The notes beneath the pieces were generated by a model. It did no database searches. It was given only the letters and a program-made list of their open reading frames with translations, and had not been told where the DNA came from. From Caldicellulosiruptor kronotskyensis 2002 (GTDB lineage: Bacteria > Bacillota > Thermoanaerobacteria > Caldicellulosiruptorales > Caldicellulosiruptoraceae), in contig NC_014720.1 in NCBI RefSeq assembly GCF_000166775.1, forward strand, positions 1-64,000: a stretch of 64,000 nucleotides of DNA, in the 5' to 3' direction. Both the position numbers and the translations under genes were made by a program. Shown here one piece after another: positions 12,846 through 37,840 of this stretch; the first letter of the stretch is position 1; each line of letters begins with the position of its first letter.

Positions 12846-12908
12846 ACTACTCGAGTATACAAATTAGTTTAAATAATTCAATTATTTTTGGGGATAGGGG
12901 AGATACAA

Positions 12909-15900: not shown

Positions 15901-18900
15901 ATATTAGCATAGAAGGGAATGGTCCTGAGTTTAAATTTGTGAGGTATTACAATTCGTTTGCTAATCAACAAAAGACGATAGTAGGTAAAGGTTTTAGAAC
16001 CAATTTTGACAGCAAACTTACAAAGGTAGCGGGAGTCGGGATAGTCCAAGCAGGGGTATTGAATGTAAGAGAAGGACCGAATGTAAATACCAAAAAGATA
16101 GGGTATTTGACTAAGGGGACAAAGGTGCAAATTGAAGAGGATGGTAACAAGAACGGCAGTGGTTGGCACAGAATTGTATATAAAGGTAAATCTGCATATA
16201 TTTGCGCAGCATATGTCAAAGAGCTAAACAATGGAATTGAAGTAACATATCCAAGTGGTAGTACGATAGTATTTGTGGATGATAATGGAGATGGAATTTA
16301 CTTATCAGACAGTAACAAAGCTGACAAGGTAGTTTTGTCAGGTAGTGAATATGTATTGATACAAAGAGATTTGACGAGATATGTTTTTGACAAGAGTGGA
16401 AAGCTTATCAAAATTGGTGATAGGAATGAAAATTACATTATTATTGAGTATTCTGGTGACAAGATATTTGCGGCAAGGGATGTATTCGGCAGAAAGTTAG
16501 AATTTATCTTTCAAGGGGATAACCTGGTATGTATAAGAGAGAACATCAAAGGTAAAATAGGTAGGAAAGTAGAATTTGTATATGATAACAAGGATAGACT
16601 AATAAAAGTAATTGGGGTTGATGGCGCAGAGACAAAATATGAATATGATGAGAAAGATAGGCTCAAGAGGATAATTGATGCAAACGGGCACCAAGTGGTA
16701 AGGAATGAATATGATATTTTAGGTAGGATAGTAAGGCAATATGATGGGGAAGATATAATCAGATTTTTAATATACGATGATGAAGACAGAGTAAGATATT
16801 ATATAGACGAAAATGGTAATGAGAGTATGATAGTATTCAATGAAGAACTAAAACCAATAAAAGAGAGAAATGCATTGGGTGGGGGTTGTGACTACAAGTA
16901 TGAGATTTATGACGGTTCAAAGTGGATAGATGTGACAACTCCTGATTTGGATAAGGATGTGGTTGTGAGCGATCTTACACGCGAGAAATACCAGGAGCTG
17001 AAAGAGAAGGGTAGTATGACAAAGCAGGTTACAATTCAGATAATAAAGACTTCTCCTAGTTTAGAAACAGCAAAGACTACACAAATATACGATGGACGTG
17101 GCAATATTATCCAGGTGATAGATGCTTATGGTAATTCAATAAAAATGAAATATGACAACAATAATAATTTAATTGAGCAGACAGATAGAATTGGTGCTAC
17201 TACCAAATATGTTTATGATGCCGAGGGTATAAATTTAATTGAGAAGATTGATCCACTTGGAAACAAGGAAAGATATGAATATTATTCTATAAATTCGGGC
17301 ATAAAACTCAAAGGTTTACTTGCAAAGTATATAGATAAAAATGGTAATGAGACGAGATACTATTATGAAGATGAATATAACAATTTAACACGAGTGGTTG
17401 ACGCAGAAGGTTATGAGACAAAATATGAATATGACCAGTTAGGCAGAAAAATAAAAGAAATAAATGAAAGAGGATATGTAACAAGGTTTGAGTATGATCC
17501 AGAAGGCAGAATTACAAAAGAAATAGACGCGTTTGGTAAAACAAAAGTATATGTATATGACAAAGTAGGTAATTTAATAGAAGAAATCGATCGCCTTGGC
17601 AACAAAACAAGATATGTATACGATGATAAAAACAGGCTTATAAAAGAAATTGATGCGATGGGTGGAGAGTATCAATACTTTTATGATCCTGTAGGGAACA
17701 AGATAAAGGAGATAGACCCTGAAGGAAGAGTAACCAAATATACTTATGATGAGCTTAACAGACTTGTTGAGGTAGAAGATGCAGAAGGTAATAAAACCAA
17801 ATTCAAATACGATTTAGCAGGAAGAAAAATATCGGAGGTAAATGCCTTAGGAAAAGAGACAAGATATGAATATGATTTATTAGGAAGACTTACGAAAGTG
17901 ATTGATCCTTTAGGTAAAACCCGAAGTTACCAATACAATGCTGAAGGATATAAAATATCAGAGACAAATAAAAACGGTGCTACTACTTCATATGCATATG
18001 ATTTAGCAGGAAGGTTAATAACGGTATATTATCCAGATGGAACTAGAAGGAGTTATAACTATGATGATAATGGTAATGTAATCAGTATCACCAATCCAAG
18101 AGGATATGTGACAAAATACTACTATGACAAACTAAACAGGGTAATCAAGGTAGAAGACAGCAACGGCAAAGCAGTAACATATGAGTATGACGGTTGTGGA
18201 AATGTAATTTGCTTTAAAGACAAAAAAGGAAGAGAAACAAGGTACGAATATGATGCTCGTGACAGAGTAAAAAGAGTAATAGCGCCAAACAGAGCACAAA
18301 CAGAGTATGAGTACGATGCAGAGAGCAGAGTTGTCAAGGTCACAGATGCAAAAGGAAGAAGCGAGGAATATATGTATGATGAGCTTGGTAGAGTTGTTGT
18401 ATATAAGGACAAGTTAGGAAATGTAATCAAATACGCATATGACAAGATGGGTAATAGAACACAGCTTATTGATAGAAGAGGAAATGCAACAAAGTATGAG
18501 TATGATAAATTGAATAGGGTAGTAAAGGTAATTGACGCGTATGGAAATGAAAGTAGGCTGGAGTATGATGCTGTTGGGAATAATATAGCAAAGACAGACA
18601 GAAGAGGAAACACAACAAAGTATGAATATGATGCAAATAACAGACTAGTGACAATAATTGATCCATATGGAAATAAGATTAGATTTGAGTATGATGGAGA
18701 AGGCAATGTAATATGCAGAATAGATGCAAGAGGGAACAGAATGTATTATAGTTATGATGGATTGAACAGGTTGAGAACTGTCCAAGACAACGATGGCAGG
18801 AAAACTATTTATGAATATGATGAGAATGGGAATATAGTAAAGATAATACGACCAGACGGCAAGTATGTAACCTACAGGTATGACAATTTGGACAGGTTGG

Positions 18901-21893
18901 TAAGAGTTACACAAGAGAATGGAGCTGTGACAGAGTACAGGTATGACGAAGAGGATAATTTAATTGAGGTCAAGGATGGGAATGGCAATATAACAAGGTA
19001 TGAATACAATGAGATAGACAGGCCTGTCAAAGTAATAGATGCAATAGGCAATGAAGAAAGATATAGCTATGACTTGGTAGGGAATATAGTATATGCAATA
19101 GACAAGAATGGAGTTAGGATAGAGTATAGCTATGATCAACTTGACAGGGTAGTGCATGTCAAAGCTGGTGGAGTAGAAGTGAGATATAGTTATGATGAAG
19201 AAGGCAACAGAATTCAGATGTCAGACAAAACAGGGATAAACAAATATGAATATGATAAGCTAAATAGGTTGATAAGGAAAATATATCCAGATGGCAAGAG
19301 TATAGAATATGAATACGACCAAGAAGGTAATGTAATAAAGGTAAAGGACCCGAGCGGATATGTGACGCAATACAAGTATGACAAGATGAATCGACTTGAA
19401 GAGGTGATAACCTCAGATGGTAGCACAAGATATTCATACGATGAGAATGGAAATGTGAAATCAATAGAGTATCCGAATAAGTTGAAGTTTGAGTACGAAT
19501 ATGATAGCAGGAACTTACTTAAAGGATTAGTGGTTACAGCAAGAGATGTTGTAAGGAATGAGATAGATAAGTATTATACTCCTAGCAGCGTGATAGAACA
19601 AGGTGGTGGTACAAGCACATATATTTACAAGTATGAATATGGATATGATGACAATGGCAATATGATATACAAACAGGAGCCTATAGGTAGGACAGAGTAC
19701 AAGTATGATGAGGTAGGTAGAGTAGCTGAAGTCAAAGATAGATTTGGGCGATTAACTCGATATGAATATGACAATGTAGGCAATAGAATAAAGGAGATAG
19801 TTGAGGTCCCGACAGGTATAAGCAGAGATAGTCTTAATTCTGAAGGGCTGAATATTAGATACGATTATGGAGAAGTATACAGCGTTGAGAAGACTTACAC
19901 ATATGATAAATTAAATAGACTATTGAGCATTGAATCTCGAGACGGAGAAGGGAATATTGTAGGTGTTAACAACTACAGCTATGACAACAACGGGAATTTG
20001 ATAAGAGCAGAGGAAAGATGGCGCGCAAGGGTATACAAGGGTCAGGAAAGCAAAGTAGTTGCAAAAGGGATAGAAAAGCAAGATTTACAGACTGTATATC
20101 AGGATGCATATACTGCAGAGAATGTTCAGGTACAGACAAGCGTATATAACTCAGCATATAGTTCGAACAATAGCACAGTAGTAGTTTCAGTATATGATAG
20201 TGTACACGGCAGTGCATACGATTCGCAAAATTCAACTTATGACCAAAGTATTGCTGTAAAAGAGGTAGTTTACGAGACGGTATATGAAGATGTTTATGAG
20301 ATAGAAGAGAAGATTAAGGTAAGTGAATTTAGATATGATGAGCTTGGCAGGATGGTATGGGCAAAGATTGACAATAATGTGGTAGAATTTGAATACGACG
20401 GAGATGGGCTCAGAACAAAGAAGATAACAGCAAATGATGTAAAAACATACTACTGGTCTGGCAGCAATCTTATATATGAAAGCGATGCAACGGGCAAAGG
20501 ATTCAGCAGCATATGGGGCTTGAGTATGATAGGAAGGACGGACGGTAGTAATACAGAGTATTTTATGAAAGATGGGCATGGAGATGTACTTATCACGTTT
20601 GACAAAAGCGGGCAGAGGAAGAATATATATGAATATGATTTGTATGGTAATGTAATAAAAGAAATAGAGACAGGGCAAGAGAACCCGATAAGATATGCAG
20701 GATACTACTATGACAAGGAATTGGAGTGGTATTATTTAAAGACAAGGTATTATGATAGTAGGATAGGGAGGTTTGTGAAAGAGGATAGTATAAGGGGAGA
20801 TATAACAGACCCCGAGAGTTTGAACCTATACACTTACTGTACAAATAATCCTGTGAATTTATATGATCCGGATGGAGAGCTTGCGATAGTGCCACTGTTA
20901 GTCCTTGTAGGAGGATTAGCCTTGCAGACTGCAATTGGGGTGGGTTTGGATACTTTAGTGCATAGGATTGAACACAAGGGGAGTTTGAAAGGGTTCAACT
21001 GGAAGAGAAGTATTTTGACAAACTTAGTTGTGTCAGCAGCAGGAGTATTAATAGGAGGATCGTTTACTGCAATAACGTATAGTGCAAAAGCAGTAAAAGC
21101 AGCAAAAGCAGCAAAAGCAGCCACAGTCGCTGCCAAAACCTTAAGTTCACAAGCCATCAAAGAATCTATAAAGAATGGTGCAAAGAAATTAATTGATCCA
21201 AAAACTCACTTCAAAGCTGCAATAAAAGCATTGCCCTCAACAGTGGAAGAAACCTTGAGGAACAAAAAACCAGATGAACCAGTCTATAAGACTTTCTTGA
21301 AGAATTATTTAGCTAACGTAGCTGCTTCGGCAGTGAGTGTAAATTGGGATAGAAAAGTTGAGAAATATGTCGGACAATATTTTCAAAATGTTTCAAAGAA
21401 ATCTGCTATATTTTACCAAAAACTTGTAGAGGAAGCAGCAAAGGGTATTAACTTAGGAAGGATAATTGTACGAGGAATCAAAAAGGGTATATCAAAATGG
21501 AGGGAACTTGGCTCGCAAGAGCCTTTAATACCAAATGTAATTAGTGAAACAAATCAGAGAACAGAACGAGTAAAAGAACTAGAACCAAAACCTTATATAC
21601 AAGATAATGTAAGAACAAGTGAAGATAACGTATGGTTAAAAGAAAGCAAAAGAATTATTCCAGAGAATGTAGTAAGCAGGAATGTCATAAGAATTGTTCC
21701 AAATGGGCCAAGTATAGTGGAGCAAATCCAGAATTTTAGTTGGAGTCTGCAATCAATGTTGGGGGCTGATTTTAACTTAGGGGCGGTAAGAGGAGGCGAG
21801 CCGAGAGTACCGGGAGTAGATTTAACATTTGGCTATATGGCACCTGTGAATAGGATGATAGTGCCGAGGGTAGGCAGGGTATCAGCATATTGA
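12909..21893 (+). CDS. Giant S-layer-anchored VWA/RHS-repeat surface protein
   Basis: The product is about 2994 residues. In order it has a signal peptide (1-30), three SLH domains for cell-wall anchoring (about 40-92, 109-158, 176-226), an Ig-like stretch, two fibronectin-III-like domains (383-553), thrombospondin-3-like Ca-binding repeats (562-632, DxDxDGL motifs), a VWA domain (764-944) with the MIDAS motif DNSGS, an SH3b domain (1039-1107), over 1400 residues of YD/RHS repeats, and an RHS core ending in PVNLYDPDG near residue 2655. The RHS shell normally encloses a C-terminal toxin released by self-cleavage after that motif. The 338-residue tail here has two hydrophobic segments and a Lys/Ala-rich helix and matches no toxin I recognise. 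The frame opens at a TTG at 12888, but the GTG at 12909 has a GGGGAG site six bases upstream. Confidence 0.9.
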   Translation: MRFPKKLKALLAFFILFVFVFNTNLYVFSQGSSLKDQNPNYKDLRGHWAENEFRWMIEKGIISGVKVNGVMLAKPDEKLTRAEAVVILLRTIFEKELLEEEIKKLREDSFKDISNHWSRDYINVAARYGLVKGYSDKTFRPNQKVTREEFVLMLIRVSKYREQAASESKQNDKKIKFKDVSVNNFGYKEIIFAVEKGLIKGYNDGTFRPRSYISRAEAAEIVARALKVDVFITYKATDHQITKENASEFFELVVDKEEVGIIEKAKLTLKSKVKGVKFTAEWKASGGKLEVAKDNQSAIWSPTDAEEGKDYIVTVEVTVLTDDGDKIKIQKIARIRVNECVQLTKNENIEGPVNEIDPLFTKRESNNLVQENSSYNPLEEKLTAPVLKIAKKGEYVELTWNEVKGARSYIVKRGKVSGEYEVLASGVITTAYVDGPMDGKTTYYYVVAAVGANGTTSMNSNEVVYKALPQSPKLFGTYNGTSARLTWTKANGAERYTLYRSTVSGGPYYAIAENLLTNVFEDTNLTSGTVYYYVVKAINELGESEYSNEVAMGEGVTVAAKFNPDDDEDGDGLTNVEELKYATSLKKNDSDGDGLSDGYEVKKGTNPLVPDTDNDGIYDGSEVVMGTDPLAKNPLTSAEKYAVSEDGKVFVKALSDANILIAPLQVKRSDNVFINSLKGIVGKAIEITAGGFDIKRAEIVVNYDEAELNGVDENNLMLYYVNYDKKILEPLEDVVVDTVYNRVSGKTEHFSTFLLGDKNMPVDLSKVDIVFVLDNSGSMSSNDPNYYRIEATKKFIQNIDELNNRVGLVDFDSSVYVRSNLTSDKNKLLQALNAMRWTGGSTNIGGGLKAALELFDQEQSKKIIVLLSDGYHNTGIHPNDVLPELIKQEIVVNTIALGKDCDRELLHDIADKTKGDYFYVDNTGGLSQEDVDKQIELIYEKLTKWITLQKEAEKNLKPQEVLSIEYNDVGLDNEEFHKWITTAMTNLLTGNYMEEFEDISIEGNGPEFKFVRYYNSFANQQKTIVGKGFRTNFDSKLTKVAGVGIVQAGVLNVREGPNVNTKKIGYLTKGTKVQIEEDGNKNGSGWHRIVYKGKSAYICAAYVKELNNGIEVTYPSGSTIVFVDDNGDGIYLSDSNKADKVVLSGSEYVLIQRDLTRYVFDKSGKLIKIGDRNENYIIIEYSGDKIFAARDVFGRKLEFIFQGDNLVCIRENIKGKIGRKVEFVYDNKDRLIKVIGVDGAETKYEYDEKDRLKRIIDANGHQVVRNEYDILGRIVRQYDGEDIIRFLIYDDEDRVRYYIDENGNESMIVFNEELKPIKERNALGGGCDYKYEIYDGSKWIDVTTPDLDKDVVVSDLTREKYQELKEKGSMTKQVTIQIIKTSPSLETAKTTQIYDGRGNIIQVIDAYGNSIKMKYDNNNNLIEQTDRIGATTKYVYDAEGINLIEKIDPLGNKERYEYYSINSGIKLKGLLAKYIDKNGNETRYYYEDEYNNLTRVVDAEGYETKYEYDQLGRKIKEINERGYVTRFEYDPEGRITKEIDAFGKTKVYVYDKVGNLIEEIDRLGNKTRYVYDDKNRLIKEIDAMGGEYQYFYDPVGNKIKEIDPEGRVTKYTYDELNRLVEVEDAEGNKTKFKYDLAGRKISEVNALGKETRYEYDLLGRLTKVIDPLGKTRSYQYNAEGYKISETNKNGATTSYAYDLAGRLITVYYPDGTRRSYNYDDNGNVISITNPRGYVTKYYYDKLNRVIKVEDSNGKAVTYEYDGCGNVICFKDKKGRETRYEYDARDRVKRVIAPNRAQTEYEYDAESRVVKVTDAKGRSEEYMYDELGRVVVYKDKLGNVIKYAYDKMGNRTQLIDRRGNATKYEYDKLNRVVKVIDAYGNESRLEYDAVGNNIAKTDRRGNTTKYEYDANNRLVTIIDPYGNKIRFEYDGEGNVICRIDARGNRMYYSYDGLNRLRTVQDNDGRKTIYEYDENGNIVKIIRPDGKYVTYRYDNLDRLVRVTQENGAVTEYRYDEEDNLIEVKDGNGNITRYEYNEIDRPVKVIDAIGNEERYSYDLVGNIVYAIDKNGVRIEYSYDQLDRVVHVKAGGVEVRYSYDEEGNRIQMSDKTGINKYEYDKLNRLIRKIYPDGKSIEYEYDQEGNVIKVKDPSGYVTQYKYDKMNRLEEVITSDGSTRYSYDENGNVKSIEYPNKLKFEYEYDSRNLLKGLVVTARDVVRNEIDKYYTPSSVIEQGGGTSTYIYKYEYGYDDNGNMIYKQEPIGRTEYKYDEVGRVAEVKDRFGRLTRYEYDNVGNRIKEIVEVPTGISRDSLNSEGLNIRYDYGEVYSVEKTYTYDKLNRLLSIESRDGEGNIVGVNNYSYDNNGNLIRAEERWRARVYKGQESKVVAKGIEKQDLQTVYQDAYTAENVQVQTSVYNSAYSSNNSTVVVSVYDSVHGSAYDSQNSTYDQSIAVKEVVYETVYEDVYEIEEKIKVSEFRYDELGRMVWAKIDNNVVEFEYDGDGLRTKKITANDVKTYYWSGSNLIYESDATGKGFSSIWGLSMIGRTDGSNTEYFMKDGHGDVLITFDKSGQRKNIYEYDLYGNVIKEIETGQENPIRYAGYYYDKELEWYYLKTRYYDSRIGRFVKEDSIRGDITDPESLNLYTYCTNNPVNLYDPDGELAIVPLLVLVGGLALQTAIGVGLDTLVHRIEHKGSLKGFNWKRSILTNLVVSAAGVLIGGSFTAITYSAKAVKAAKAAKAATVAAKTLSSQAIKESIKNGAKKLIDPKTHFKAAIKALPSTVEETLRNKKPDEPVYKTFLKNYLANVAASAVSVNWDRKVEKYVGQYFQNVSKKSAIFYQKLVEEAAKGINLGRIIVRGIKKGISKWRELGSQEPLIPNVISETNQRTERVKELEPKPYIQDNVRTSEDNVWLKESKRIIPENVVSRNVIRIVPNGPSIVEQIQNFSWSLQSMLGADFNLGAVRGGEPRVPGVDLTFGYMAPVNRMIVPRVGRVSAY
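16430..20650 (+). repeat. YD/RHS repeat array inside the giant gene
   Basis: Dozens of imperfect units of about 21 codons (63 bp) carry the pattern G-N-x-T-x-Y-x-Y-D-x-x-G-R/N. In known RHS proteins they fold as a beta-strand spiral that makes a hollow shell. Units diverge at nucleotide level, so this is a protein repeat rather than a recent DNA duplication. A non-repeat insert rich in Val, Tyr and Ser interrupts it at about 20010-20320. Confidence 0.85.
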
Positions 21894-24590: not shown

Positions 24591-25631
24591 CTACTTTATA
24601 TACTCTCTCAAACGCTCAGGATACATTATCAAAAGCTGATTTAATATTATATCCCAATTTCTATACCTCTGTGTCCACTTTCTTACAACATTTTTTGTTG
24701 CAAGATAAAGCATTTTCTCTAACGCTGTATCGTTTGGAAATACTGATTTTGTCTTTGTCACTTTTCTAAATTGTCTATGAACTCCTTCTATGATGTTTGT
24801 TGTATAAATTATCTTCCTTATTCTGTCGGGGGAAACTTAAAAAACGATGTAAGTAGCTCCCAGTTGCTTTCCTAACTCCTGAACGCATAAGGATACTGTT
24901 TCCCCCATTTTTCTTTTACATGATAAAAATTTTCCAGTGCTTCTTCTTCATTAGTTGCCTGATACACTTTTTTAAAATCCTTTGAAAATTCTTTTATATG
25001 CTTGTATGAAACATATTTGAACGAATTTCTGAGCTGATGAATAATACACCTTTGAATATCGCTTTTTGGGAACACTGCTTCTATTGCTTCCTTTAAACCT
25101 GTCAACCCATCAACACAAAATAGTAGTACCTCTTCTACTCCTCTTGTTTTCAAGTCATTCAAAACGCCCAACCAGAATTTAGAGCTTTCACTTTCTCCAA
25201 TTCATATTCCTAAAACATCCTTATATCCTTCAATGTTAATACCTAAAACAACATAGGCAGCTTTATTCACAATTTTACCCTCATCTTTTATCTTGTAATG
25301 GATCGCGTCCATGAAAATAAATGGATATATCTTTTCCAATGGTCTATTTTGCCATTATCTCATCTCAGGAATAATTTTTTCTGTAATTTTGCTAACCATT
25401 TCAGCAGATATTTCGATACCATAAATATCTTTAATTTGCTCATGAATATCTCGTGTTGTCATTCCTGCAGAAATACAGGACTATGATTTTGTCTTCAATC
25501 TCTGCTTCTAAAAAACATTGTAGCACATCCTTAAATAGGTCCTTTAAGCTTTCATAAATGTCGCTTACACTTTGGATGTTATTTTTTCTTATGAATTCAA
25601 GTAATTGCTCTTTTGTTAAAACATTTTCCAT
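24591..25631 (-). pseudogene. Broken IS256-family (mutator-type) transposase
   Basis: The gene reads from an ATG at 25631 (MENVLTKEQLLEFIRKNN) to a stop at 24591. It has several in-frame stops and shifts, for example near 25470, 25345, 25200 and 24880. The longest intact piece (25171-24872) carries the family's core: LFCVDGLTGLKEAIEAVFPKSDIQRCIIHQLRNS, including the second catalytic Asp region, and the FYHVKEKWGKQYP helix. The end reads YPERLREYIK. In the intact family this is a DDE transposase. Nothing functional remains. Confidence 0.85.
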
Positions 25632-25872: not shown

Positions 25873-28332
25873 TTATCTTTTTTTCCTCATCACGCCGACA
25901 ACTTTTCCAACTATCCGAAGTTCTCCTTCTTTAATATTGATTGGCTCATATTTGCTGTTTTCAGGAATGAGCAGGACTGTGCTTCCCATTTTGCAAAATC
26001 TTTTCACAGTTATTTCTCCGTCAAGCCATGCAATAACAATATCTCTATTTTCTGCAGTATTGCATTTTTGAACAATTGCAATGTCTCCGTCTTTTATATT
26101 TGCTTCCACCATGCTGTCGCCCTTAACTTTAATAGCAAAATATCTTTCAGGATCAGAGATAATAGATGTTGGCAGAGCAACCTTACCAATTGCCTCATCA
26201 GATGTTTCCACGGGCACTCCTGCTGAAACCTTTTCATACAGGTTTATCTTAAGAACATCTTCTGATTTTATCTCTATTAAATGTCCATCTTGAACTAAGT
26301 CAATATGTCCTGTGTCTACCAATTTTCTAAGTCTGTAAGTTTTCGACCTTCTGAAATCTACAACTTCATATTCTTCAATTTGAGAAGGAAGCATACTTAT
26401 ATCAAAGTGTGGAAAATCATCAACATTTTCAAATCTGCTATCAAATATTAAAATGCTGTTTCCATCTGTCACAACTCCAAAAGAGCATTTTGGAATTATA
26501 TTCAAATAGCTTTTGAGCTGTTCAGCCCCATGGTTTATTCCAGAAAGATATGGCTTTACCTCAAAAATTATAAATGGTACTTTTTCTTTATTTTGGTCAT
26601 ACCTGAACACAACAACGTCCACAAATGCAGGTTTTGAAAATACGTTTATCCTGTACTCAACATCAATCAATTCTTCTGGGTATTTATAAGTTTCAATAAG
26701 TTCATTTATAAGCCACTGGCGAACCTCTTCTTCTTTGCAGTAAATGTCTCTGATTTTGTTTATGTATCTGTAATCATCAATCCTTAGCTTGTAAAAACTG
26801 CGAAGACTACATTTAGAATCAATTCGAAGAAGTTTTGTATTCAGCTCACTCAAAAATTTTGATGGTTTTCTTGAGCAGCACAGATACAGCCTTTCGTTTG
26901 CTCTTGTCATACCAACGTAAAAGAGCTTTTTGTCAGTTGTCTCCTGTAGCTTTGCAACCTCATTGTCTTCACATGATGAGTATGGGATGATGTTGCTATT
27001 AAGTCCAATGATAAAAACTACTTTAAACTCTAAACCTTTTATAGAGTGCATGGTGATAAGTCTTATACCCTCTTCTTCAAAGTTTTCACCCGAATCTGAG
27101 TTTAAAAATATGGCTTTTATCCCTTTTGAAGAAGCATAATTATAAAAAGACTCCAGATACCTTCTATTTTTACAAATCACTGCTATATCTTTTAATTGAA
27201 ATTCACATGCCAATTTGTTTGCAATTTCATTGCAAACAAATTCTGCTTCTTGTTCTTCGGTTTGGAAAATCTTTAGTACAGGCAGAGGACCTTGTTTGTC
27301 TATTAAAGCAGGTTTTACAAAATTTTCATTTTCTATTATTTCTGGTGTCTTTTCTATTAAGCTATATGCAAGATTTGCAATCTGAACAGTTGTCCTGTAG
27401 TTTTTAGACAGCGTATAACTTTTTCCTGTCATGTCAAATCCAATGCTTGCAAACGACCTTCCCCTGACAAGCCATGAGTGGGTGTAAATGCTCTGGGCTG
27501 TGTCTGCAATGAACATTATGCTGGAATAGCTTTTTTCGGAGTTATAAAGAAGCTTTAAAATTTCTAATTGAACCTTTGTGAGGTCTTGGCTTTCATCTAT
27601 TATGATATGTGTATATTTTGTAATCTTGTGTTCATTTGTTTTCAAATAATCCAGTACAATCAAGGCCATATCTTTAAAGTCAACAAGTTTATTTTCTTTT
27701 AAAAGCGAGGTATAAAGCTGCATGAGTTCAAATATAGCTTTTCTTGTCTCTGAATTCTTTGCTATCTTCTGAGGCATATCCTTTTGATTCTGAACAGTTC
27801 TACCTATCCTATCGGTGCTTTGATATTCCTCCAATTCTCTAATATTACATGATTTTATCCACTCAATCTCATCTAAAAGAAAATTGGCAAAAGAAAGGTC
27901 TATATATTGAACCTTTGGGTATTTTTCTTTAATCTTAACAATTGCCTGATTTAAAAAATTATATTTTATTGCCTTGTTGTTGACAATCTCAAGATTTTCG
28001 CCAGAATATTCTTTGTATTCCTGAAAAAATCCATAAATTATGCTGTCAATTGAAGCTATCTTAACCTTATCCTTGTTGTCATTTACCAGAGAATCAAATG
28101 AAATATATGCATCTTCCAACTTGTTATAGAGATATTTTAAATAATTTACAAGCGTTTTATTAAAAGTTACCATTAAAATTTTGTCATCTGGCGCAAAGCA
28201 ATATTCATTCAGAAGATAGACTAATCTATATATTGCAACAGTTGTTTTTCCTGAGCCTGCAACACCTTTTACCAGCATATGCCCGTTTGGCTTTGCCTGA
28301 GATAACTTCTTCTGCTCAATGTTCAAATTCAC
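25873..28332 (-). CDS. SF1 helicase-nuclease-LexA/S24 peptidase fusion
   Basis: The product is about 819 residues with three parts. Residues 1-540 are a UvrD/Rep-type helicase: Walker A GVAGSGKTT (about 23-31), IIIDESQDLT, LSKNYRTT, ITMHSIKGLEFKVVFI and YVGMTRANERLYL. Residues about 560-680 look like an HsdR-N/PD-(D/E)XK-type nuclease domain (VDVVVFRYD… IIFEVKP). The last 120 residues are a LexA-type S24 peptidase: Ala-Gly at about 704-705 (SAGVPV), Ser 740 in KGDSM and Lys 777 in ITVKRF. The Ser and Lys lie 36 and 73 residues after the Ala, nearly identical to LexA spacing, so self-cleavage is plausible. The frame is open to 28458, but the GTG at 28332 follows GGGGG by seven bases. It has its own promoter and appears single-gene. 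Confidence 0.9.
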   Translation of the reverse strand: MNLNIEQKKLSQAKPNGHMLVKGVAGSGKTTVAIYRLVYLLNEYCFAPDDKILMVTFNKTLVNYLKYLYNKLEDAYISFDSLVNDNKDKVKIASIDSIIYGFFQEYKEYSGENLEIVNNKAIKYNFLNQAIVKIKEKYPKVQYIDLSFANFLLDEIEWIKSCNIRELEEYQSTDRIGRTVQNQKDMPQKIAKNSETRKAIFELMQLYTSLLKENKLVDFKDMALIVLDYLKTNEHKITKYTHIIIDESQDLTKVQLEILKLLYNSEKSYSSIMFIADTAQSIYTHSWLVRGRSFASIGFDMTGKSYTLSKNYRTTVQIANLAYSLIEKTPEIIENENFVKPALIDKQGPLPVLKIFQTEEQEAEFVCNEIANKLACEFQLKDIAVICKNRRYLESFYNYASSKGIKAIFLNSDSGENFEEEGIRLITMHSIKGLEFKVVFIIGLNSNIIPYSSCEDNEVAKLQETTDKKLFYVGMTRANERLYLCCSRKPSKFLSELNTKLLRIDSKCSLRSFYKLRIDDYRYINKIRDIYCKEEEVRQWLINELIETYKYPEELIDVEYRINVFSKPAFVDVVVFRYDQNKEKVPFIIFEVKPYLSGINHGAEQLKSYLNIIPKCSFGVVTDGNSILIFDSRFENVDDFPHFDISMLPSQIEEYEVVDFRRSKTYRLRKLVDTGHIDLVQDGHLIEIKSEDVLKINLYEKVSAGVPVETSDEAIGKVALPTSIISDPERYFAIKVKGDSMVEANIKDGDIAIVQKCNTAENRDIVIAWLDGEITVKRFCKMGSTVLLIPENSKYEPINIKEGELRIVGKVVGVMRKKR

Positions 28333-28378
28333 AAATGTTACCCCCACACAAAAACAAATGTTTATTATTTTTGATATT

Positions 28379-28407
28379 ATTATAAACCAATTTTGTATTC
28401 TTTGCAA
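28379..28407 (-). promoter_or_regulatory. Promoter of the helicase-peptidase gene
   Basis: On the minus strand TTGCAA (28407-28402) and TATAAT (28384-28379) are 17 bp apart, about 47 bp before the GTG start. I see no standard LexA/DinR operator around it. Confidence 0.7.
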
Positions 28408-28488
28408 ACAAAATCCATAGCAATAAAGAAATATTGCCAATAAAAAGAGAAAAGTCATTTCAATTTTGCAATTTATACAAATTTAGAG

Positions 28489-28551
28489 TTAATAAAAAAT
28501 AAAATTTTATTTATTAATTTGTGTTTATAAATCTTTTTAAGATGGTATAAG
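28489..28551 (+). promoter_or_regulatory. Near-palindrome and weak promoter before the peroxiredoxin gene
   Basis: An AT-only near-palindrome (28489-28517, arms TTAATAAA…TAAAA and TTTTATTTATTAA) is followed by TTTATA (28524-28529) and TATAAG (28546-28551), 16 bp apart. Peroxide genes are often controlled by PerR at AT-rich palindromes, but this one does not match the PerR box well enough to claim. Confidence 0.35.
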
Positions 28552-29382: not shown

Positions 29383-31653
29383 TCAAAGTTTGCCTTTTTC
29401 TAAGAGTTTAAAATGTTTATTATAAAAATTGAAATTATCTATTTGTTTAATCCAGTCTAAAAAAGATGTTATTGTATTACGATAAATATTATTTTCCCTT
29501 CTATTATTTGTTTTTAGTATTATCAATTCTCGTGCTCTTGTAATGGCCACATAATATACTCTCAACTCCTCTTCAAATTGCTTTTTTATTTCATCGGTTA
29601 CCATAGAAGAAAAGTCTAAGTCATCTTCTATATTATTATAAATTTTCAATTTATGTTTATTAAAGCCAATCATCATTTCTTTTTCAGTTTTCCTGTAAGT
29701 AATTAATGGCTCAGTGTCACTTATCACTATTGGTTCATCTATAAAAGGAATGATTACAATATTGAATGCTAATCCTTTTGATTTGTGAATAGTCATTACT
29801 TGAATGCTATCTTGTTGTTTATCCTCAATAAAATCTGCATTTTCTTCTTTTTGTCCGGTCAGTATCATATTATTTAGATATTCAAAGAAGGAAAGAGGAT
29901 GCAAAAATTCTTGATTATGGATATTTCTAACTATCTCTCGTAATTTATATAAGTTATATAATTCCTGATGTTGGCTTGTCGAGATATAATATTCTTCTAT
30001 ATTTGTATTTTCAAATACAAAATTTAGAATGTCAGCTACAATATTGCTTCTTGCATAAAGAGAAAGTTCGTTTAAAAATTTTTCTAAATCGTTTCTGCCT
30101 GTTGATAACATAGCAAAATAATAATCTGTATTTTTTACTTCATGTTTTGTAATTTCAGAAGGGTAAGATATATACTCGAACAATTTACATGTACTAATTA
30201 TTGCGTTACTTTGAAAAAAACCGCCTCCACCATAGATTTTTACTGGTATTTTGTTTTTCTTTAATTCATCTGCAATTTTTTCAACTTGTCTATTTTTTCT
30301 ACATAATACCGCAATATCTGAATATTTAATATCACTGTTGTCTGAATAACACATTTCATTTTTAATCTTTTTTATAATTGTTGAGATATCCATTTCTTCA
30401 ATTGTTAAAGTGTTTTCTATTTTTGAGGTTTTCCCCTTCCATTTATATTGTGGGAAGCTTCTTTGGTCAACGTAAGATTTGTTTATCTGCGGAAATATTA
30501 ATGGTTGATAATTATCAAATTTAATTTGATATAATTTACCTTTATATGTAGCTGAATAGCTTTGCGAGAAAATTTTGTTAATTACCTCTATCACATTCTT
30601 GTTACTTCTAAAATTATCTGTCATTTCTATCAATGGGCTGTTACACTTATTAGCAATAATATTCCCCATTTCTATTGAGCTTTGGATGTCTGCACCTCTG
30701 AAAGAGTATATAGATTGTTTTTCATCCCCTACAAGGAATATATTAACCCCTTTTTCCAGTAATGTATTTACCAATTCAAATTGACTGCGGTTAGTATCTT
30801 GGAATTCATCTATAAAGAGATACTTGTATTTTGAAGCAAGTTTAGTTGCAACAAAATCATTTCCTTTAACAAGTTTTGATGCATATTTAATCAAATCATT
30901 TGGAGTCAAGATATTGTTTTCTTTTTTAAAATTTTCAATTTCTCTTCCTACTTCTAAAAATAGATCCAAAAAGGAATCTTTAAAGTTAGACCAAAAATAT
31001 TGTTCTTGATTTTTCCTAAACTTATTTTTAATGTCTTTTTCAGTTATTTCGTCACCTTTATTATCGCATTCTTCATAAAGTGTTCTTACAAGTTGATGCA
31101 GTCGATAAGAAGGTAAAACATTTAAAAATTCATTTTCTGCATAATTGTCAATAGCCTTTCTAATAATTTCATTTAACTTCCATGTAACACTTTTTATTTC
31201 AAATTTAGGAGATATACCTATAAGATATCCATACTGTCGTAAAATAATTTCGCAAAAACCGTGGATTGTATAGACATTTAACATAGATGTTAAATCTACA
31301 AATTTTCTTTTCTCATCTTCCTGTCTATTCATAATATTTCTATTATCAGCTAATAATGAGGAAAGAGATGACAATTTCTTATGATTTAAAGAATAATCGA
31401 AATATAATCTTTCAACTAATCTCCTCTTGACTTCTGATGTTGCCTTGTTAGTAAATGTAATAACTACAAAATTTGATATAGATGCCTTAGGATTTTCATT
31501 TAAACATTTGATTATTAACTCCACTAATAATTCAGTCTTACCTGTTCCTGCTCCAGCCTTAAGATAAAAGGGAAAATTTACCTTCAAAATATTTTGTTGA
31601 GTCTCAGTTAATGGAGATTTTGAAAACTTTTCAGCATAGTGCATTATATTCAA
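29383..31653 (-). CDS. AddA-like UvrD-family helicase lacking a nuclease domain
   Basis: The 756-residue protein has all SF1A helicase motifs: Walker A AGAGTGKT (33-40), TFTNKATSEVKRRL, DEFQDTNRSQF, GDEKQSIYSFRGAD, MTDNFRSNKNVI, MTIHKSKGLAFNIVIIP and YYVAITRARELI. The layout resembles AddA/RecB. However, it ends about 50 residues after motif VI, where AddA has a C-terminal PD-(D/E)XK nuclease of several hundred residues. The TTG start overlaps the stop of the AddB-like gene (TTGA) behind GGGGGG, so translation is coupled. It is the last gene of a three-gene minus-strand operon and probably unwinds DNA for partners in that operon. Confidence 0.85.
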   Translation of the reverse strand: MNIMHYAEKFSKSPLTETQQNILKVNFPFYLKAGAGTGKTELLVELIIKCLNENPKASISNFVVITFTNKATSEVKRRLVERLYFDYSLNHKKLSSLSSLLADNRNIMNRQEDEKRKFVDLTSMLNVYTIHGFCEIILRQYGYLIGISPKFEIKSVTWKLNEIIRKAIDNYAENEFLNVLPSYRLHQLVRTLYEECDNKGDEITEKDIKNKFRKNQEQYFWSNFKDSFLDLFLEVGREIENFKKENNILTPNDLIKYASKLVKGNDFVATKLASKYKYLFIDEFQDTNRSQFELVNTLLEKGVNIFLVGDEKQSIYSFRGADIQSSIEMGNIIANKCNSPLIEMTDNFRSNKNVIEVINKIFSQSYSATYKGKLYQIKFDNYQPLIFPQINKSYVDQRSFPQYKWKGKTSKIENTLTIEEMDISTIIKKIKNEMCYSDNSDIKYSDIAVLCRKNRQVEKIADELKKNKIPVKIYGGGGFFQSNAIISTCKLFEYISYPSEITKHEVKNTDYYFAMLSTGRNDLEKFLNELSLYARSNIVADILNFVFENTNIEEYYISTSQHQELYNLYKLREIVRNIHNQEFLHPLSFFEYLNNMILTGQKEENADFIEDKQQDSIQVMTIHKSKGLAFNIVIIPFIDEPIVISDTEPLITYRKTEKEMMIGFNKHKLKIYNNIEDDLDFSSMVTDEIKKQFEEELRVYYVAITRARELIILKTNNRRENNIYRNTITSFLDWIKQIDNFNFYNKHFKLLEKGKL

Positions 31654-34600
31654 TCTGATACCCCCCAGCTAACTTTGTCAAGCTTACAAATATTTTTTAT
31701 TTCACAAGCATTGCATTTTAATAGTGGAATTGAAATATCGGAAAGTTTTAAACTAAAATCTTGTATGGAATTTTTATCTATTTGCCTGTTATAGTATCTG
31801 TCAAATATTCTTTTAGCATCATTTGGATTATTTTGTTCCCAAATAGTTAACATTATTACAAATTCTAAGTAACTGAATAAAGGTATTTGTATTGTGCTTT
31901 TTTCGTTTGCTATTGATGTTATTATATATTTATCGTAAACAGACATAGCATTAAAATTGTTTATCTTCTTTTGAGCAATTCTTTTTATAAGTCTATAAAT
32001 ATAACCTTTTGTAAACTTAATGCAATCATCAAATTCTTTTTCATTCAATAAGGAGAAATAGCTTTTTAATCGAGCTTCATTATTTTTCATAATATTTATT
32101 AAATCGAGACAGTATTCATTATCGTGTATGCTATATACTTTTCCTGAGTATATTTGTGAGTGTTCATATAAGCAACTTGAAAAATAAAACCACGAAGAAA
32201 ATCTTCCTAATTGATAAGTGTCAAAATATGCAATATGTTTGCCATCACTTAGAAGTTTCTTATAGAAAAATAATTTTTTACAGTAATTATACAATACTAC
32301 TTCATTTCTTATAATTTTCTCTTTAAATTTACCCTTGCAGATTACTATGTTATTTTTATCAATGTTAATAGAACTTCTATTAATTCTTGGTTGATATTTA
32401 GGGCTTAAAGCAACTTCTTCTATGTTTTTGCCTTCTTTGCCCAAAATAGATATTAAATCTTCTATAAAGATTGAATGTGTTAATTCTTTATCTCCTTCTC
32501 TTTGAGAATAAGTAAAATATATTCTTTCTTGAGTAAAATCTAAAACGTTTTTGAAAAGATATTTTTCTAATTGCAAATGATAATCAAGTGAGTGAATATG
32601 CGCAGGTTTTTCGCATATTTTGTAATTCTCAATAATTTCTATAATCTCCTCTGAAAATGGAAATTCAAGTCTATATGGTCTTGGGTATTTATCATCTTCC
32701 GCCATTACAAAAAAGACATATTTAAATTTATGCATGTTCTCTAAATTTTCTACATTGAGGTAAAGCTCATCGTTTTCAAATTCTTCTGGTTCGTTTTTAA
32801 ATTCGTCTATTATGTTTATAATATTATTTGCAAAATATTCAACATCTGTAGTTAAAAACGAAGAAATACTTATTTCTTTTAAAGTCTCACTTATTTTCAA
32901 AATCAACTTTCTCTCAAAATCAGTTTCTGGATCTCCTACTTTTAAGATGTCATCAGAATCAAAATCGAGTAAATAATCCCTTATTTTTTCAATAAAGTTT
33001 TTTATACTTGTCTCTTCATCTTTCAATTTGTTTTTTATTTCATTTAATAGCAGGAGTATGTCTTCCATAACATTTAAAAAATCATCGGACACAGCTAAGA
33101 AAGGATGCCCGCTATATTTATTTAGCAATGATTTTTTTTCTTCTTTAATTCTCAGAGTAATTGCTATCCACTCAGAAATATCATTGCTGTTTCTAAAATA
33201 CTCTTGGATTATTCTAAATTGGAACAGGTAGTCACTCCACTTATCACTGTTATCAGTAAAATATTTCCAGTTAGAAAATAGTATAATTTTAAACTTATCT
33301 ACATCTATTCCTTTTACAATAAGTTCACACAACTGAATGATGAATTGAGCTACGGGGTAAGAAGAAATTGGTCTTTTTGCTTTTATAACATTAATCCTTT
33401 TAAAACATTTATCAAATAACTCTAATTTTTCTTTAAAGGACAGTTCAGAACCATTAATCTTTTTTATTTCTGTTCGAAAGAAATCGAATTTACTATAGTA
33501 GATCTTATTAAAAGAATTAATATCAATTGTTTTTAATTCTTCTTCAGACATCATCTTTTGATCAAACAAAAATACTCCATATTGGCGCAAAAGTGCATCT
33601 ATCATTTCTTCATGTTTATCCTTTTCGATACCTATTACAATAGCAATTTCATTTAAAATATTATTTATTTGATTTTTTAGGTCTTCTTTTTCTGGATCAA
33701 TTTTTTCTCTGATTAACTCTCCGATTTTCTTTATAACAAATATAAGTTCTTCTTCTCTGTTAGAAAATGGTTTGTAAATTATTATGGAATGGTCTTCTTG
33801 GTCTTTTTCAAAAGAAGTATCTTTTAAGAAATTATTGCGCACAGTAACTAACCATTTTTTTGGATTTTCAGGGGATGTATGTTCAGAATCAGTTGGTTTT
33901 GATAAATAAAAATTTTTACTAAAGTTTATAATTTCACTCAATTCAATATTAAACAGTGTTTTATAATATTGCAAAATAATTCCTTCAGTTTGATCCAAAA
34001 TGTTTGATTTAGAAATTAGGTATACTTCTTTATTAAGTTTTATAGCCTGTTGGATGATGAAATACTGGATATCATCAAAGAACAGAAAACCATCAAAAAA
34101 TATTACATTGTATTTGTTTAATACCTCCAACACTTTGCTTTTTAATTTATTAATGTAAACATCTTTTCCTATCAATTGATTTAACTGTTCACTATTGATT
34201 TTTATAGTAGGTGTATTTCCGATCCTTATATTCTCTAATTCATCCAAAAATTTATTAAAAAGTTCAAAAACGTTATAAAAAAAAGAGGGATATTTATCCT
34301 TTATATTGCTTAAAATTGATTGAGGAATTTTTGTAACCTCTCGAAAGATTAGAAATTGATATAATTCAAACAACTCATTTAACAAAGAATGATAAATATG
34401 ACACTCATCAGAAGTTTTGCTAAAATAGAAGTTTTTTATCAACTCATATAAAATTATCTTTTGGTCTAGTGTAGAAATATACTTTCCTTCTTTGTGAATT
34501 AAAAATCTTAAGTATTCTTTAAAATCTTCAAATGTACATAAGTTAAAGTCATCACAAGGTATTTCAGACGATTCATTATTTATGTGTCTGTATTTAACAA

Positions 34601-34760
34601 AATTAATGTTCATTTTTTTTCCTTGGATTAGCCTTAACCTTTTTAGATTTACGGTTGCAGTAATAAGAAGGAAGTTGCCTTTACTTTCTTCTATTTTATT
34701 TTTTAATCCTTCTATATTTTCATGACTTAATAATCTTACTTTATTATGTGTCTCTAACAT
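31650..34760 (-). CDS. AddB-like protein with an iron-sulfur staple
   Basis: The product is about 1036 residues. The tail has CNACEIKNIC (three Cys spaced 3 and 6 residues, about 12-21 residues from the end), and a further Cys lies in NYCKKLFFYKKL about 200 residues earlier. This C…CxxCx5C pattern is the 4Fe-4S staple of AddB-type helicase-nucleases. Unlike AddB, it has no Walker A motif near its N-terminus, and I cannot find the nuclease signature (GxIDRxD…DYKxG) between the cysteines. It may be a structural, DNA-holding subunit of the AddA-like helicase encoded next. The frame opens at a GTG at 34775; the ATG at 34760 is eight bases after a GTGAGGT site. Compared with the chromosomal core it is unusually AT-rich. 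Confidence 0.7.
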   Translation of the reverse strand: MLETHNKVRLLSHENIEGLKNKIEESKGNFLLITATVNLKRLRLIQGKKMNINFVKYRHINNESSEIPCDDFNLCTFEDFKEYLRFLIHKEGKYISTLDQKIILYELIKNFYFSKTSDECHIYHSLLNELFELYQFLIFREVTKIPQSILSNIKDKYPSFFYNVFELFNKFLDELENIRIGNTPTIKINSEQLNQLIGKDVYINKLKSKVLEVLNKYNVIFFDGFLFFDDIQYFIIQQAIKLNKEVYLISKSNILDQTEGIILQYYKTLFNIELSEIINFSKNFYLSKPTDSEHTSPENPKKWLVTVRNNFLKDTSFEKDQEDHSIIIYKPFSNREEELIFVIKKIGELIREKIDPEKEDLKNQINNILNEIAIVIGIEKDKHEEMIDALLRQYGVFLFDQKMMSEEELKTIDINSFNKIYYSKFDFFRTEIKKINGSELSFKEKLELFDKCFKRINVIKAKRPISSYPVAQFIIQLCELIVKGIDVDKFKIILFSNWKYFTDNSDKWSDYLFQFRIIQEYFRNSNDISEWIAITLRIKEEKKSLLNKYSGHPFLAVSDDFLNVMEDILLLLNEIKNKLKDEETSIKNFIEKIRDYLLDFDSDDILKVGDPETDFERKLILKISETLKEISISSFLTTDVEYFANNIINIIDEFKNEPEEFENDELYLNVENLENMHKFKYVFFVMAEDDKYPRPYRLEFPFSEEIIEIIENYKICEKPAHIHSLDYHLQLEKYLFKNVLDFTQERIYFTYSQREGDKELTHSIFIEDLISILGKEGKNIEEVALSPKYQPRINRSSINIDKNNIVICKGKFKEKIIRNEVVLYNYCKKLFFYKKLLSDGKHIAYFDTYQLGRFSSWFYFSSCLYEHSQIYSGKVYSIHDNEYCLDLINIMKNNEARLKSYFSLLNEKEFDDCIKFTKGYIYRLIKRIAQKKINNFNAMSVYDKYIITSIANEKSTIQIPLFSYLEFVIMLTIWEQNNPNDAKRIFDRYYNRQIDKNSIQDFSLKLSDISIPLLKCNACEIKNICKLDKVSWGVSD

Positions 34761-34781
34761 TTTTATAAACCTCACTTTGTT

Positions 34782-35759
34782 TTAGTGATTTGGATGAAAT
34801 ACTTTAAATAATATTTTATCTCCTAACAATGAAACTCTATCTTTTATTACAGTTATGTTGAATTTTTCTTTTATTTTTATTGCTAATTCCTCAATGCTCT
34901 CTTGAGGAATTTTGGGATTTTCTAAATCTACTTTTTCTCTGTAAATTTTGTTTTTAAGCTTATATAGCTTCACTAAGTTTTCAAAGGGTCTATGGAGGGA
35001 AAATTCATTTCTATCTAAATCAATAATATAATTTCTAAACCATTCATTGTACTGGATAAATTTATAAAGTGCTCTCTCTTCTAAAGGGATTTCTTCTAAA
35101 AAGTTATGAGGTGACTTTTTTATTATTTGCAATAAAACTTTCTCAATGTCCTGGGATTCTTCTTTATTAATAGTAACAGCCGTTTTATTAATTTTTTTCA
35201 AGAGCAATGACTTTTTTAATTCGCTATCTAATTCTTCTACTTCAGATAATGTTTGTTTTTCTTTAGACTGGTTAATGAAATTATCTAATATTGTGGCTAA
35301 TGTTTCATCCACTTCAATAGAACTTTTGATTACCTCTTCTATATATTGCAACATACTCGAAGTTAAATTACACACAATTCCGCTTTCTTTTATATTACTC
35401 TCGCCTACTTTTACTAATCCGATACCGCTTTTTGTCAGATTGTGACTTCCTATGATTGCAAATTTATCATCGAAGTAATAGTTTTTCGAATGCATATCAA
35501 AATTAATATATACCTTCCATTTGTATTTTTTGATACTTTCTTCAAATTTAAATTCACTTACAGAATTATAAAAGTCTTTTAAATCAAACCTCAAAACAAT
35601 TACTTTTTCTATGTTGTCTTTTTTATTTTTTATCAATTCATTGTTTACAAACAGGAAAGCCTCATAGGTTACATATGCACTCAATATTGTTATCTTTTTC
35701 TCTAAAGTGGGAATGTACCTAATAAACTCATCTTTCAATGTAGTAACAAAATGTAACAT
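34782..35759 (-). CDS. Phospholipase D-family (HKD) nuclease-like protein
   Basis: The 325-residue protein has one HKD motif: His 90, Lys 92 and Asp 97 in HSKNYYFDDKF, followed by the typical GSHNLTKSG turn. Single-motif PLD proteins such as Nuc and the restriction enzyme BfiI work as dimers with one shared active site. The N-terminal 60 residues (ITILSAYVTYEAFLFV) fit the PLD fold; the C-terminal 170 are helical and unknown. It is the first gene of the minus operon, with GGGGAG nine bases before the ATG, and probably supplies the nuclease that the AddA- and AddB-like proteins lack. Confidence 0.8.
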   Translation of the reverse strand: MLHFVTTLKDEFIRYIPTLEKKITILSAYVTYEAFLFVNNELIKNKKDNIEKVIVLRFDLKDFYNSVSEFKFEESIKKYKWKVYINFDMHSKNYYFDDKFAIIGSHNLTKSGIGLVKVGESNIKESGIVCNLTSSMLQYIEEVIKSSIEVDETLATILDNFINQSKEKQTLSEVEELDSELKKSLLLKKINKTAVTINKEESQDIEKVLLQIIKKSPHNFLEEIPLEERALYKFIQYNEWFRNYIIDLDRNEFSLHRPFENLVKLYKLKNKIYREKVDLENPKIPQESIEELAIKIKEKFNITVIKDRVSLLGDKILFKVFHPNH

Positions 35760-36131: not shown

Positions 36132-37835
36132 ATGATTATAAGATATTGTGAGAACTGTAAGGTAGAATACTATGACTTGTATTCATCTGCGTGTCCAAAG
36201 TGTAATCAAAAGATGTCTTTAACTTCAAAAATATACTATTGTGAAAAGTGCAATGTACCCATTTATTCAGAAAGATGCGAAGTATGTGGGTCAGAAGGAA
36301 AATATCTAGCAACAGATGTTCGCCCGGTTTTTCTAAAAGAAAGGTTACTAATGGAGTTAATCCTTAACAAACCTTTTGAATTAAAATATTCGTCAGTTTG
36401 GGCTGATATTAGTGGTAATAGATATTTCATAGATGGTAAAGAATTGCGGATAAATAAAAAACAAGTTTACAATAATCTCTCAGAATCAGACTTAAAAGAA
36501 ATTAGTGGGAAACTGAGAGAAGTAGAAGACGAAGAAGAAAAAGAAAAATTTGATGAATCAATCAAAAAATTTATTGTGGCAAATAGTTCTCACTTTCAAA
36601 AAATATTATTTGAAGCAAAAAATTTTATAAAGGAAAATACAAAAGGATATAATTTGGACGAAATATTTATATCTTTTAGCGGTGGCAAGGACTCTACTGT
36701 TGTTAGTGATTTGGTAATGAAAGCTTTGAGCACGTCAAAAATAATACATATTCACGGGGACACTACACTAGAATTTCCTTTTACTACTGAATATGTAAAT
36801 AGGTTTAGAAAAAATAATCCATATACCCCACTAATTATTGCAAGCAATAAAGATGCGAACTTTTTTGAATTGTGTGATATTTTAGGACCGCCAAGTAGAG
36901 TGATGCGATGGTGTTGTACAGTCTTCAAAACTGGTCCAATTACTAAAAAAATTAATATGCTTTTCAAAAATAAAGAAAAAGTATTAACATTTTATGGAAT
37001 AAGAAGCAGCGAAAGTAATAGCAGAAGTAAGTATAGTGAAGTTACTATAAGCCCTAAAATTACAAGGCAAGTAGTAATTTCTCCTATATTTAATTGGACA
37101 GATTTTGATGTATGGCTTTATATTCTAACTACAGGAATTGATTTTAATGAAGCATACAAATTAGGCTATACAAGAGTAGGTTGTTGGTGCTGTCCAAATA
37201 ATAGTGAATGGTCGCAATTTTTGTCGCGTATATATTTGACAGAGATGACAGAGAAATGGGAAAAGCTGCTTGTAGATTTTGCAAGAAGATTGGGAAAAGA
37301 AGATGCAGAAATTTATGTTAAAGAAGGTAAGTGGAAGGCAAGGCAAGGTGGAGAGGGATTAGAATATAGTAATAACTCAATTATCAGTTATAAACCTTGC
37401 AGCAATGAAGAAAATACTTTTTATTATGAACTTAAAAAGCCGATTTCTAAACAACTATATGAATATTTCAAACCGTTTGGAGAGTTGAATTTTGAAATAG
37501 GGAACAAATTATTGGGAGAAGTTTATGTGCTCGATAGTAACAAAAATGTTGTATTAAAGTTGCAAGGTATTGAAGGTGATACAAATTTAAAAGTCAGTGT
37601 TTATGGCAGTAAATCAAAAATAATGAAACAAAAAATAGATGCCCAAATTACAAAATATCAGATGTGTATAGGATGTTTGGCTTGTGAGAGTATATGTCCT
37701 CTGGGTGCGATAAAAATCATTGAAAATGAATACAAAATAGATGACAATAGATGTGTAAGATGCGGAAATTGTATTCATTATTTTGATGGGGGCTGTTATA
37801 TAAGAAAAGTGTTAACTATAAAAAGAGGTGTTTAA
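36132..37835 (+). CDS. sspD: SspD-like PAPS-reductase/ATP-pyrophosphatase (phosphorothioation)
   Basis: SspD, like DndC, is thought to activate the DNA backbone with ATP for sulfur insertion. The 567-residue product has two N-terminal zinc-ribbon pairs (Cys 6/9/21/24, then CEKC…CEVC), then the PP-loop domain with SGGKDS at 183-188, the WCCTVFKTGP segment and the GCWCC cluster region near residues 353-357. Its C-terminus is a two-cluster ferredoxin (CIGCLACESIC and CVRCGNC). The ferredoxin may deliver electrons or stabilise iron-sulfur chemistry. It opens the plus operon and is five bases from sspB. The family is secure; SspD rather than a generic PAPS reductase follows from the DUF4007 and desulfurase neighbours. 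Confidence 0.85.
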   Translation: MIIRYCENCKVEYYDLYSSACPKCNQKMSLTSKIYYCEKCNVPIYSERCEVCGSEGKYLATDVRPVFLKERLLMELILNKPFELKYSSVWADISGNRYFIDGKELRINKKQVYNNLSESDLKEISGKLREVEDEEEKEKFDESIKKFIVANSSHFQKILFEAKNFIKENTKGYNLDEIFISFSGGKDSTVVSDLVMKALSTSKIIHIHGDTTLEFPFTTEYVNRFRKNNPYTPLIIASNKDANFFELCDILGPPSRVMRWCCTVFKTGPITKKINMLFKNKEKVLTFYGIRSSESNSRSKYSEVTISPKITRQVVISPIFNWTDFDVWLYILTTGIDFNEAYKLGYTRVGCWCCPNNSEWSQFLSRIYLTEMTEKWEKLLVDFARRLGKEDAEIYVKEGKWKARQGGEGLEYSNNSIISYKPCSNEENTFYYELKKPISKQLYEYFKPFGELNFEIGNKLLGEVYVLDSNKNVVLKLQGIEGDTNLKVSVYGSKSKIMKQKIDAQITKYQMCIGCLACESICPLGAIKIIENEYKIDDNRCVRCGNCIHYFDGGCYIRKVLTIKRGV

Positions 37836-37840
37836 GTATT

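What the first reader, a model, noticed from the sequence alone, without database searches (positions are those of the whole stretch)
25873..28332. Helicase-nuclease fused to a LexA-like self-cleaving peptidase
One gene joins an SF1 helicase, an HsdR-N/PD-(D/E)XK-like domain and a complete S24 domain. The S24 part keeps the Ala-Gly cleavage site, Ser 36 residues after that Ala and Lys 37 residues after the Ser; E. coli LexA has 35 and 37. The protein lacks the LexA DNA-binding domain. This suggests a repair or defence nuclease that is switched on or off by RecA-stimulated self-cleavage, a direct SOS sensor built into the effector. I know of no described protein with this three-part design.
Basis: partly seen in the sequence, partly recalled or inferred. 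Interest (0 to 1): 0.85.

Follow-up and report, generated by a model that had tools for sequence, protein, structure and literature searches.

The report
Helicase-nuclease with LexA-type self-cutting switch
One bacterial gene joins a DNA-unwinding motor, a DNA-cutting domain and the self-cutting half of the DNA-damage sensor LexA; related species carry the same gene with every active site kept, which suggests a DNA-cutting enzyme controlled directly by the cell's damage alarm.

Summary
The gene (25873-28332, minus strand, GTG start, 819 aa) encodes a UvrD-type helicase, an HSDR_N_2 PD-(D/E)XK nuclease (533-640), a variable linker and a LexA-type S24 domain (698-812) with A704-G705, S740, K777 (spacings 36, 37) and no HTH. 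It is a real family: 16 full-length members (41-97% identity) from 10 genera of the window's phylum plus Ilyobacter (Fusobacteriota). Helicase motifs, nuclease residues (E, D, ExK, QxxxY) and the Ser-Lys dyad are invariant in all 16; Ala-Gly in 15. The fused S24 domains form one clan apart from their hosts' own LexA proteins (100/99 support); a predicted S24 model matches LexA (Z 19.8). The gene is accessory, solitary, often absent or broken, and often near defence genes (Zorya II, McrBC, GmrSD). Most likely it is a defence-type helicase-nuclease whose LexA module senses RecA filaments and cuts itself, parting an 82-kDa helicase-nuclease from a 13-kDa dimerisation domain. Whether that turns it off (slightly favoured) or on is open. 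Cleavage, RecA response and nuclease activity are inferred, not shown. I found no description of this architecture in the open papers searched.

The parts
25873..28332 (-). whole gene, GTG start, 819 aa plus stop
28379..28407 (-). sigma-70-type promoter-like site TTGCAA-17-TATAAT
   Evidence: consensus match only
28351..28364 (-). weak LexA-box-like palindrome TAAACATTTGTTTT between the -10 box and the ribosome site; inconclusive
   Evidence: compare recA TAAACATATGTTCG and lexA TAAACAAAAGTTTG
26869..28326 (-). UvrD/PcrA-like SF1 helicase, residues 3-488 by Pfam; Walker A K29, DESQ 246, QSIY 280, YRTT 312, HSIKG 429, YVGMTRA 472; only about 115 residues between motifs IV and V, so a PcrA-type 2B domain is probably reduced or missing
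26413..26736 (-). HSDR_N_2 PD-(D/E)XK nuclease, residues 533-640; E559, D572, E591-x-K593, Q605xxxY609
26245..26409 (-). variable linker, residues 642-696, 22% mean identity, no invariant column
25897..26241 (-). LexA-type Peptidase_S24 domain, residues 698-812
26218..26223 (-). predicted scissile bond A704-G705
26113..26115 (-). predicted catalytic Ser740
26002..26004 (-). predicted catalytic Lys777

Best explanation
An accessory, defence-type helicase-nuclease with a built-in LexA switch. The SF1 motor and HsdR-like nuclease act on DNA as a dimer held by the S24 domain. When RecA filaments form on single-stranded DNA, the S24 domain docks on them as LexA does, cuts its own Ala704-Gly705 bond, and parts the 82-kDa helicase-nuclease from the 13-kDa S24 dimerisation body. 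I think this most likely turns the enzyme off, as a built-in form of restriction alleviation: the nuclease attacks invading DNA but is disarmed once host DNA is damaged. Shown by sequence or model: architecture, intact and conserved active sites, LexA-type fold, one clan of fused S24 domains, defence-type genomic setting. Inferred: cleavage, its stimulation by RecA, dimerisation, nuclease activity, and the off direction (only slightly favoured over on).
For: Domain order and active sites conserved in 16 full-length members of 11 genera; Ser-Lys dyad 16/16 and Ala-Gly 15/16; S24 as conserved as the nuclease while the linker before the cut site is free to drift; S24 nearest to LexA then UmuD by profile and by predicted fold, RecA-bound LexA included; the genome has RecA and LexA; fused S24 domains one clan against LexA; nuclease motif complete and HSDR_N_2 in 14/14; defence neighbours in many loci; patchy and broken copies. 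LexA docking and self-cleavage on RecA filaments (PMC3834820); ClpX clearing of cut LexA and CI N-terminal fragments (PMC10584840); ClpXP removal of HsdR in restriction alleviation (PMC4231737, abstract).
Against: No biochemical data. Ilyobacter's member has Ser-Gly-Asp at the cut site, and Gly-to-Asp at this Gly is the classic non-cleavable LexA change (LexA G85D structure; non-cleavability from general knowledge), although a Ser-Gly bond one residue earlier would still be possible. Ilyobacter and L044 loci lack obvious defence neighbours. Neighbours were picked by eye, so enrichment is not quantified. Loss of the S24 domain leaves helicase and nuclease whole, so an off switch needs dimerisation or degradation to matter.
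Confidence: 0.45

Rival explanations
1. On-switch: the intact protein is autoinhibited through the S24 dimer, and RecA-triggered cleavage frees an active helicase-nuclease during SOS or infection (abortive or DNA-degrading response), as UmuD is activated by cleavage to UmuD'.
For: Same anatomy as the best explanation; UmuD is the second-nearest S24 relative; defence neighbours.
Against: Any DNA damage would then free a nuclease in the cell; no partner or immunity gene recurs.
Confidence: 0.25
2. Recruitment module: the S24 domain mainly targets the motor to RecA (or phage recombinase) filaments, so that it strips and trims them, with cleavage as release or of little importance.
For: S24 domains of LexA, UmuD and CI are solved bound to RecA filaments (entries listed); UvrD/PcrA-type helicases are known to dismantle RecA filaments (general knowledge); Ilyobacter may be uncleavable.
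Against: Ser, Lys and Ala-Gly would not need such strict conservation.
Confidence: 0.13
3. S24 self-cleavage responds to something other than RecA (for example a phage protein, a nucleotide or the helicase's own DNA binding), or is constitutive processing.
For: The fused S24 domains form a clan separate from LexA, so the trigger may have diverged.
Against: Closest folds and sequences are RecA-responsive LexA and UmuD.
Confidence: 0.13

Closest known systems
LexA (S24 repressor)
   Same: S24 fold, Ala-Gly site, Ser-Lys dyad and spacing; NCBIfam lexA model is passed (114.3 vs 110.95 bits)
   Different: No HTH; an 82-kDa helicase-nuclease in front; own clan apart from host LexA.
UmuD / MucA-type S24 proteins
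   Same: S24 dyad; effector rather than repressor
   Different: UmuD has a short N-terminal arm and a polymerase partner; here cleavage would remove the S24 domain from an enzyme.
HsdR of type I restriction enzymes
   Same: HSDR_N nuclease with E, D, ExK, QxxxY, together with a helicase motor on one chain
   Different: SF1 UvrD motor in front of the nuclease; no HsdM/HsdS noticed beside the gene; S24 tail.
GajB and NERD+UvrD (C3a187) defence helicases
   Same: UvrD-like helicase core (139 and 133 bits)
   Different: No GajA partner noticed; the nuclease here is HSDR_N_2 behind the helicase; S24 tail added.
AddA/RecB helicase-nucleases
   Same: SF1 helicase followed by a PD-(D/E)XK-type nuclease on one chain
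   Different: Only weak whole-protein scores (recB 60 bits of 696, addA 58 of 708); other nuclease family; no AddB partner inferred; S24 tail.

Membership tests
LexA / Peptidase_S24 domain | S24 fold | tested here: met
   107 bits in Pfam; model pLDDT 87, Z 19.8 to Thermotoga LexA
LexA / Peptidase_S24 domain | Ser-Lys dyad and Ala-Gly cleavage site | tested here: met
   A704-G705, S740, K777; 16/16 dyad, 15/16 Ala-Gly
LexA repressor (whole protein) | N-terminal helix-turn-helix DNA-binding domain | tested here: not met
   No HTH family in Pfam; helicase and nuclease instead
LexA repressor (whole protein) | RecA-stimulated self-cleavage | not testable with these tools
   needs purified protein and RecA
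HSDR_N / PD-(D/E)XK nuclease | profile match and catalytic residues E, D, ExK, QxxxY | tested here: met
   14/14 members match HSDR_N_2; residues invariant in 16/16
HSDR_N / PD-(D/E)XK nuclease | nuclease fold in a structure model | tested here: inconclusive
   single-sequence model failed, pLDDT 36
Type I restriction enzyme | HsdM and HsdS genes alongside | tested here: inconclusive
   no recurrent neighbour family in the gene tables of relatives; hsdM/hsdS not searched for by model
SF1 UvrD-type helicase | helicase motifs | tested here: met
   Walker A, DExQ, QSIY, YRTT, HSxKG, VGMTRA kept in all 16
Gabija (GajB) | gajA gene next to gajB | tested here: inconclusive
   no recurrent neighbour family; GajA not searched for specifically

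The most novel reading that the evidence does not exclude
A new class of effector: a DNA-attacking motor-nuclease that carries its own SOS sensor, so that RecA filaments switch a defence enzyme directly by self-proteolysis, without transcription.
Probability: 0.4. Interest if true: 0.88.

Novelty: new variant of a known kind. Interest (0 to 1): 0.72.

Why it matters
RecA-stimulated self-cleavage is known (to my knowledge) for repressors such as LexA and phage CI and for UmuD. A conserved enzyme with the same module would extend SOS signalling to direct control of a nuclease, and would link DNA-damage state to antiphage defence or restriction alleviation in one testable protein.

Tried and rejected
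Assembly or gene-calling fusion: rejected by conserved full-length homologues. Ordinary LexA: NCBIfam lexA passes its cut-off but the HTH is lacking. Phage gene: viral-contig scans gave helicase-only matches or HTH/UmuD-type S24 proteins with at most 166 aa before the S24 match, none fused to an enzyme. Classic SOS box CGAACN4GTTCG: not found upstream of any member tested; a weak AT-rich palindrome only. Obligate partner gene: none found. Structure of nuclease+S24 from a single sequence: pLDDT 36, useless. Nuclease profile against PDB sequences: no significant hit. Nuclease profile in viral contigs: none. Distribution elsewhere: 0 of 398 genomes in the phylum of G404 (a Magnetococcales genome) and 0 of 392 in the phylum of G405, without a positive control in those sets. 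Literature: nine full-text searches, six of them for such a fusion or near it, found no description; subscription papers are not held.

Full report
Observation. The ORF on the minus strand at 25873-28332 encodes 819 aa from a GTG start. Pfam finds, in order, a UvrD helicase, HSDR_N_2 and Peptidase_S24, all well above cut-off, and no HTH. A704-G705, S740 and K777 give spacings 36 and 37. PADLOC ranks the protein nearest GajB and NERD+UvrD helicase models; a PDB sequence search gives PcrA, Rep, UvrD, LexA and UmuD.

Family. In 398 genomes of the window's phylum 14 (the window's own included) carry a full-length homologue, with further split or truncated copies. In the window's own family 5 of 13 genomes have it intact (four of the genus and one of a sister genus), two have broken or partial copies and six lack it. 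A 43% homologue sits on the Ilyobacter polytropus megaplasmid, annotated only as 'S24 family peptidase'. The 16 aligned members (41-97% identity to the window) keep every helicase motif, nuclease E/D/ExK/QxxxY, Ser and Lys; Ala-Gly is kept in 15, and Ilyobacter has Ser-Gly-Asp. HSDR_N_2 matches 14 of 14 nuclease segments. Mean pairwise identity among distinct genera is helicase 50%, nuclease 48%, linker 22%, S24 45%.

S24 domain. Profile search against PDB gives LexA first, then UmuD and CI. A model built with 34 viral-contig S24 relatives has mean pLDDT 87, with low confidence mainly at the N-terminal end and around the cleavage loop. It matches Thermotoga LexA (Z 19.8, 1.7 A over 122 residues), E. 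coli LexA, RecA-bound LexA and UmuD'. In a tree with 15 LexA proteins of the same genomes, the 17 fused domains (16 members and one paralogue) fall on one side of a 100/99 branch, which fits one fusion event followed by long retention. All 17 genomes searched also hold other S24 genes, in 15 of them an evident LexA of about 200 aa. Among 80 viral S24 loci none has an enzyme in front.

Context. There is no constant partner, but defence genes recur. In L048 a NERD-HRDC gene and then Zorya II ZorA/B/E follow directly downstream. In L055 McrBC lies upstream and a GmrSD gene 62 bp downstream. GmrSD and a ResIII/HIT pair occur in L049, an overlapping PLD-ResIII helicase (type-IV-restriction-like) plus HIT in L047, a GmrSD_N gene in L053, PDC-S06 in L050 and L054, and a DUF3427 helicase next to a gene that looks like NUDIX in L056. 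These neighbours were chosen by eye, so enrichment is not quantified. Ilyobacter (L008) and L044 lack such neighbours. In the window an SspABC/PbeA/PbeC-type island begins at 36132, about 8 kb from the gene. In relatives without the gene the neighbouring peroxiredoxin is conserved, but homology to the window stops close upstream of the gene's promoter, at 28434-28495. This is the pattern of an accessory gene.

Regulation. No canonical LexA box was found. A weaker palindrome TAAACATTTGTTTT lies between the -10 box and the ribosome site; recA and lexA of this genome have related sites. About one to three such sites are expected per window by chance, so this is inconclusive.

Mechanism. LexA is a dimer through its C-terminal domain and docks on RecA filaments, which trigger its self-cleavage (PMC3834820). 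The cut N-terminal fragments of LexA and phage CI are then handled by ClpX in S. aureus (PMC10584840). HsdR, a helicase-nuclease, is itself targeted by ClpXP in restriction alleviation (PMC4231737, abstract). By analogy, cleavage here would part an 82-kDa helicase-nuclease from a 13-kDa dimerisation body. I favour inactivation slightly, because a nuclease freed by any DNA damage would be dangerous, but activation as for UmuD is open. None of the biochemical steps is shown.

Novelty. The parts are known; the combination, with all three active sites under long conservation, was not found described in the library searched. I file it as a new variant of a known kind: a LexA-type S24 switch on a new kind of protein. 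It is not a LexA repressor, because the HTH was tested for and is absent.

Noticed in passing
window 36132-50583: Phosphorothioation-type defence island: SspD/BrxP-like sulfurtransferase, SspB-like DUF4007, SspC-like, SspA/DndA-like cysteine desulfurase, PbeA, PbeC, and a GmrSD/HEC-05-like gene. PbeC is split into two ORFs, 45830-46597 and 46606-47865.
   Followed up: partly
window 29383-35759: Three-gene cluster on the minus strand: RecB/AddA-like helicase (756 aa), a 1041-aa protein with no family match, and a PLD-domain protein (weak DrmC match). Possibly an undescribed defence operon.
   Followed up: no
L034 1480-2979; L060 7834-9321: Paralogue in genome G359 (500 aa): degenerate helicase N-terminal part joined straight to an S24 domain with Ala-Gly, Ser and Lys kept; the rest of the helicase and the nuclease are lost. 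Perhaps a regulator or decoy of the full-length copy.
   Followed up: partly
window 25873-28332: The NCBIfam lexA equivalog model passes its cut-off on this protein (114.3 vs 110.95 bits), so automatic annotation could call it LexA.
   Followed up: no
L040, L024/L033, L023/L036, L025/L035: Split or truncated copies of the gene in G401, G204, G050 and G393.
   Followed up: partly
window 24872-25171: 99-aa ORF that reads like a fragment of an IS256-type transposase, next to the gene (judged by eye).
   Followed up: no
window 12888-21893: Very long ORF of 3001 aa upstream; not examined.
   Followed up: no
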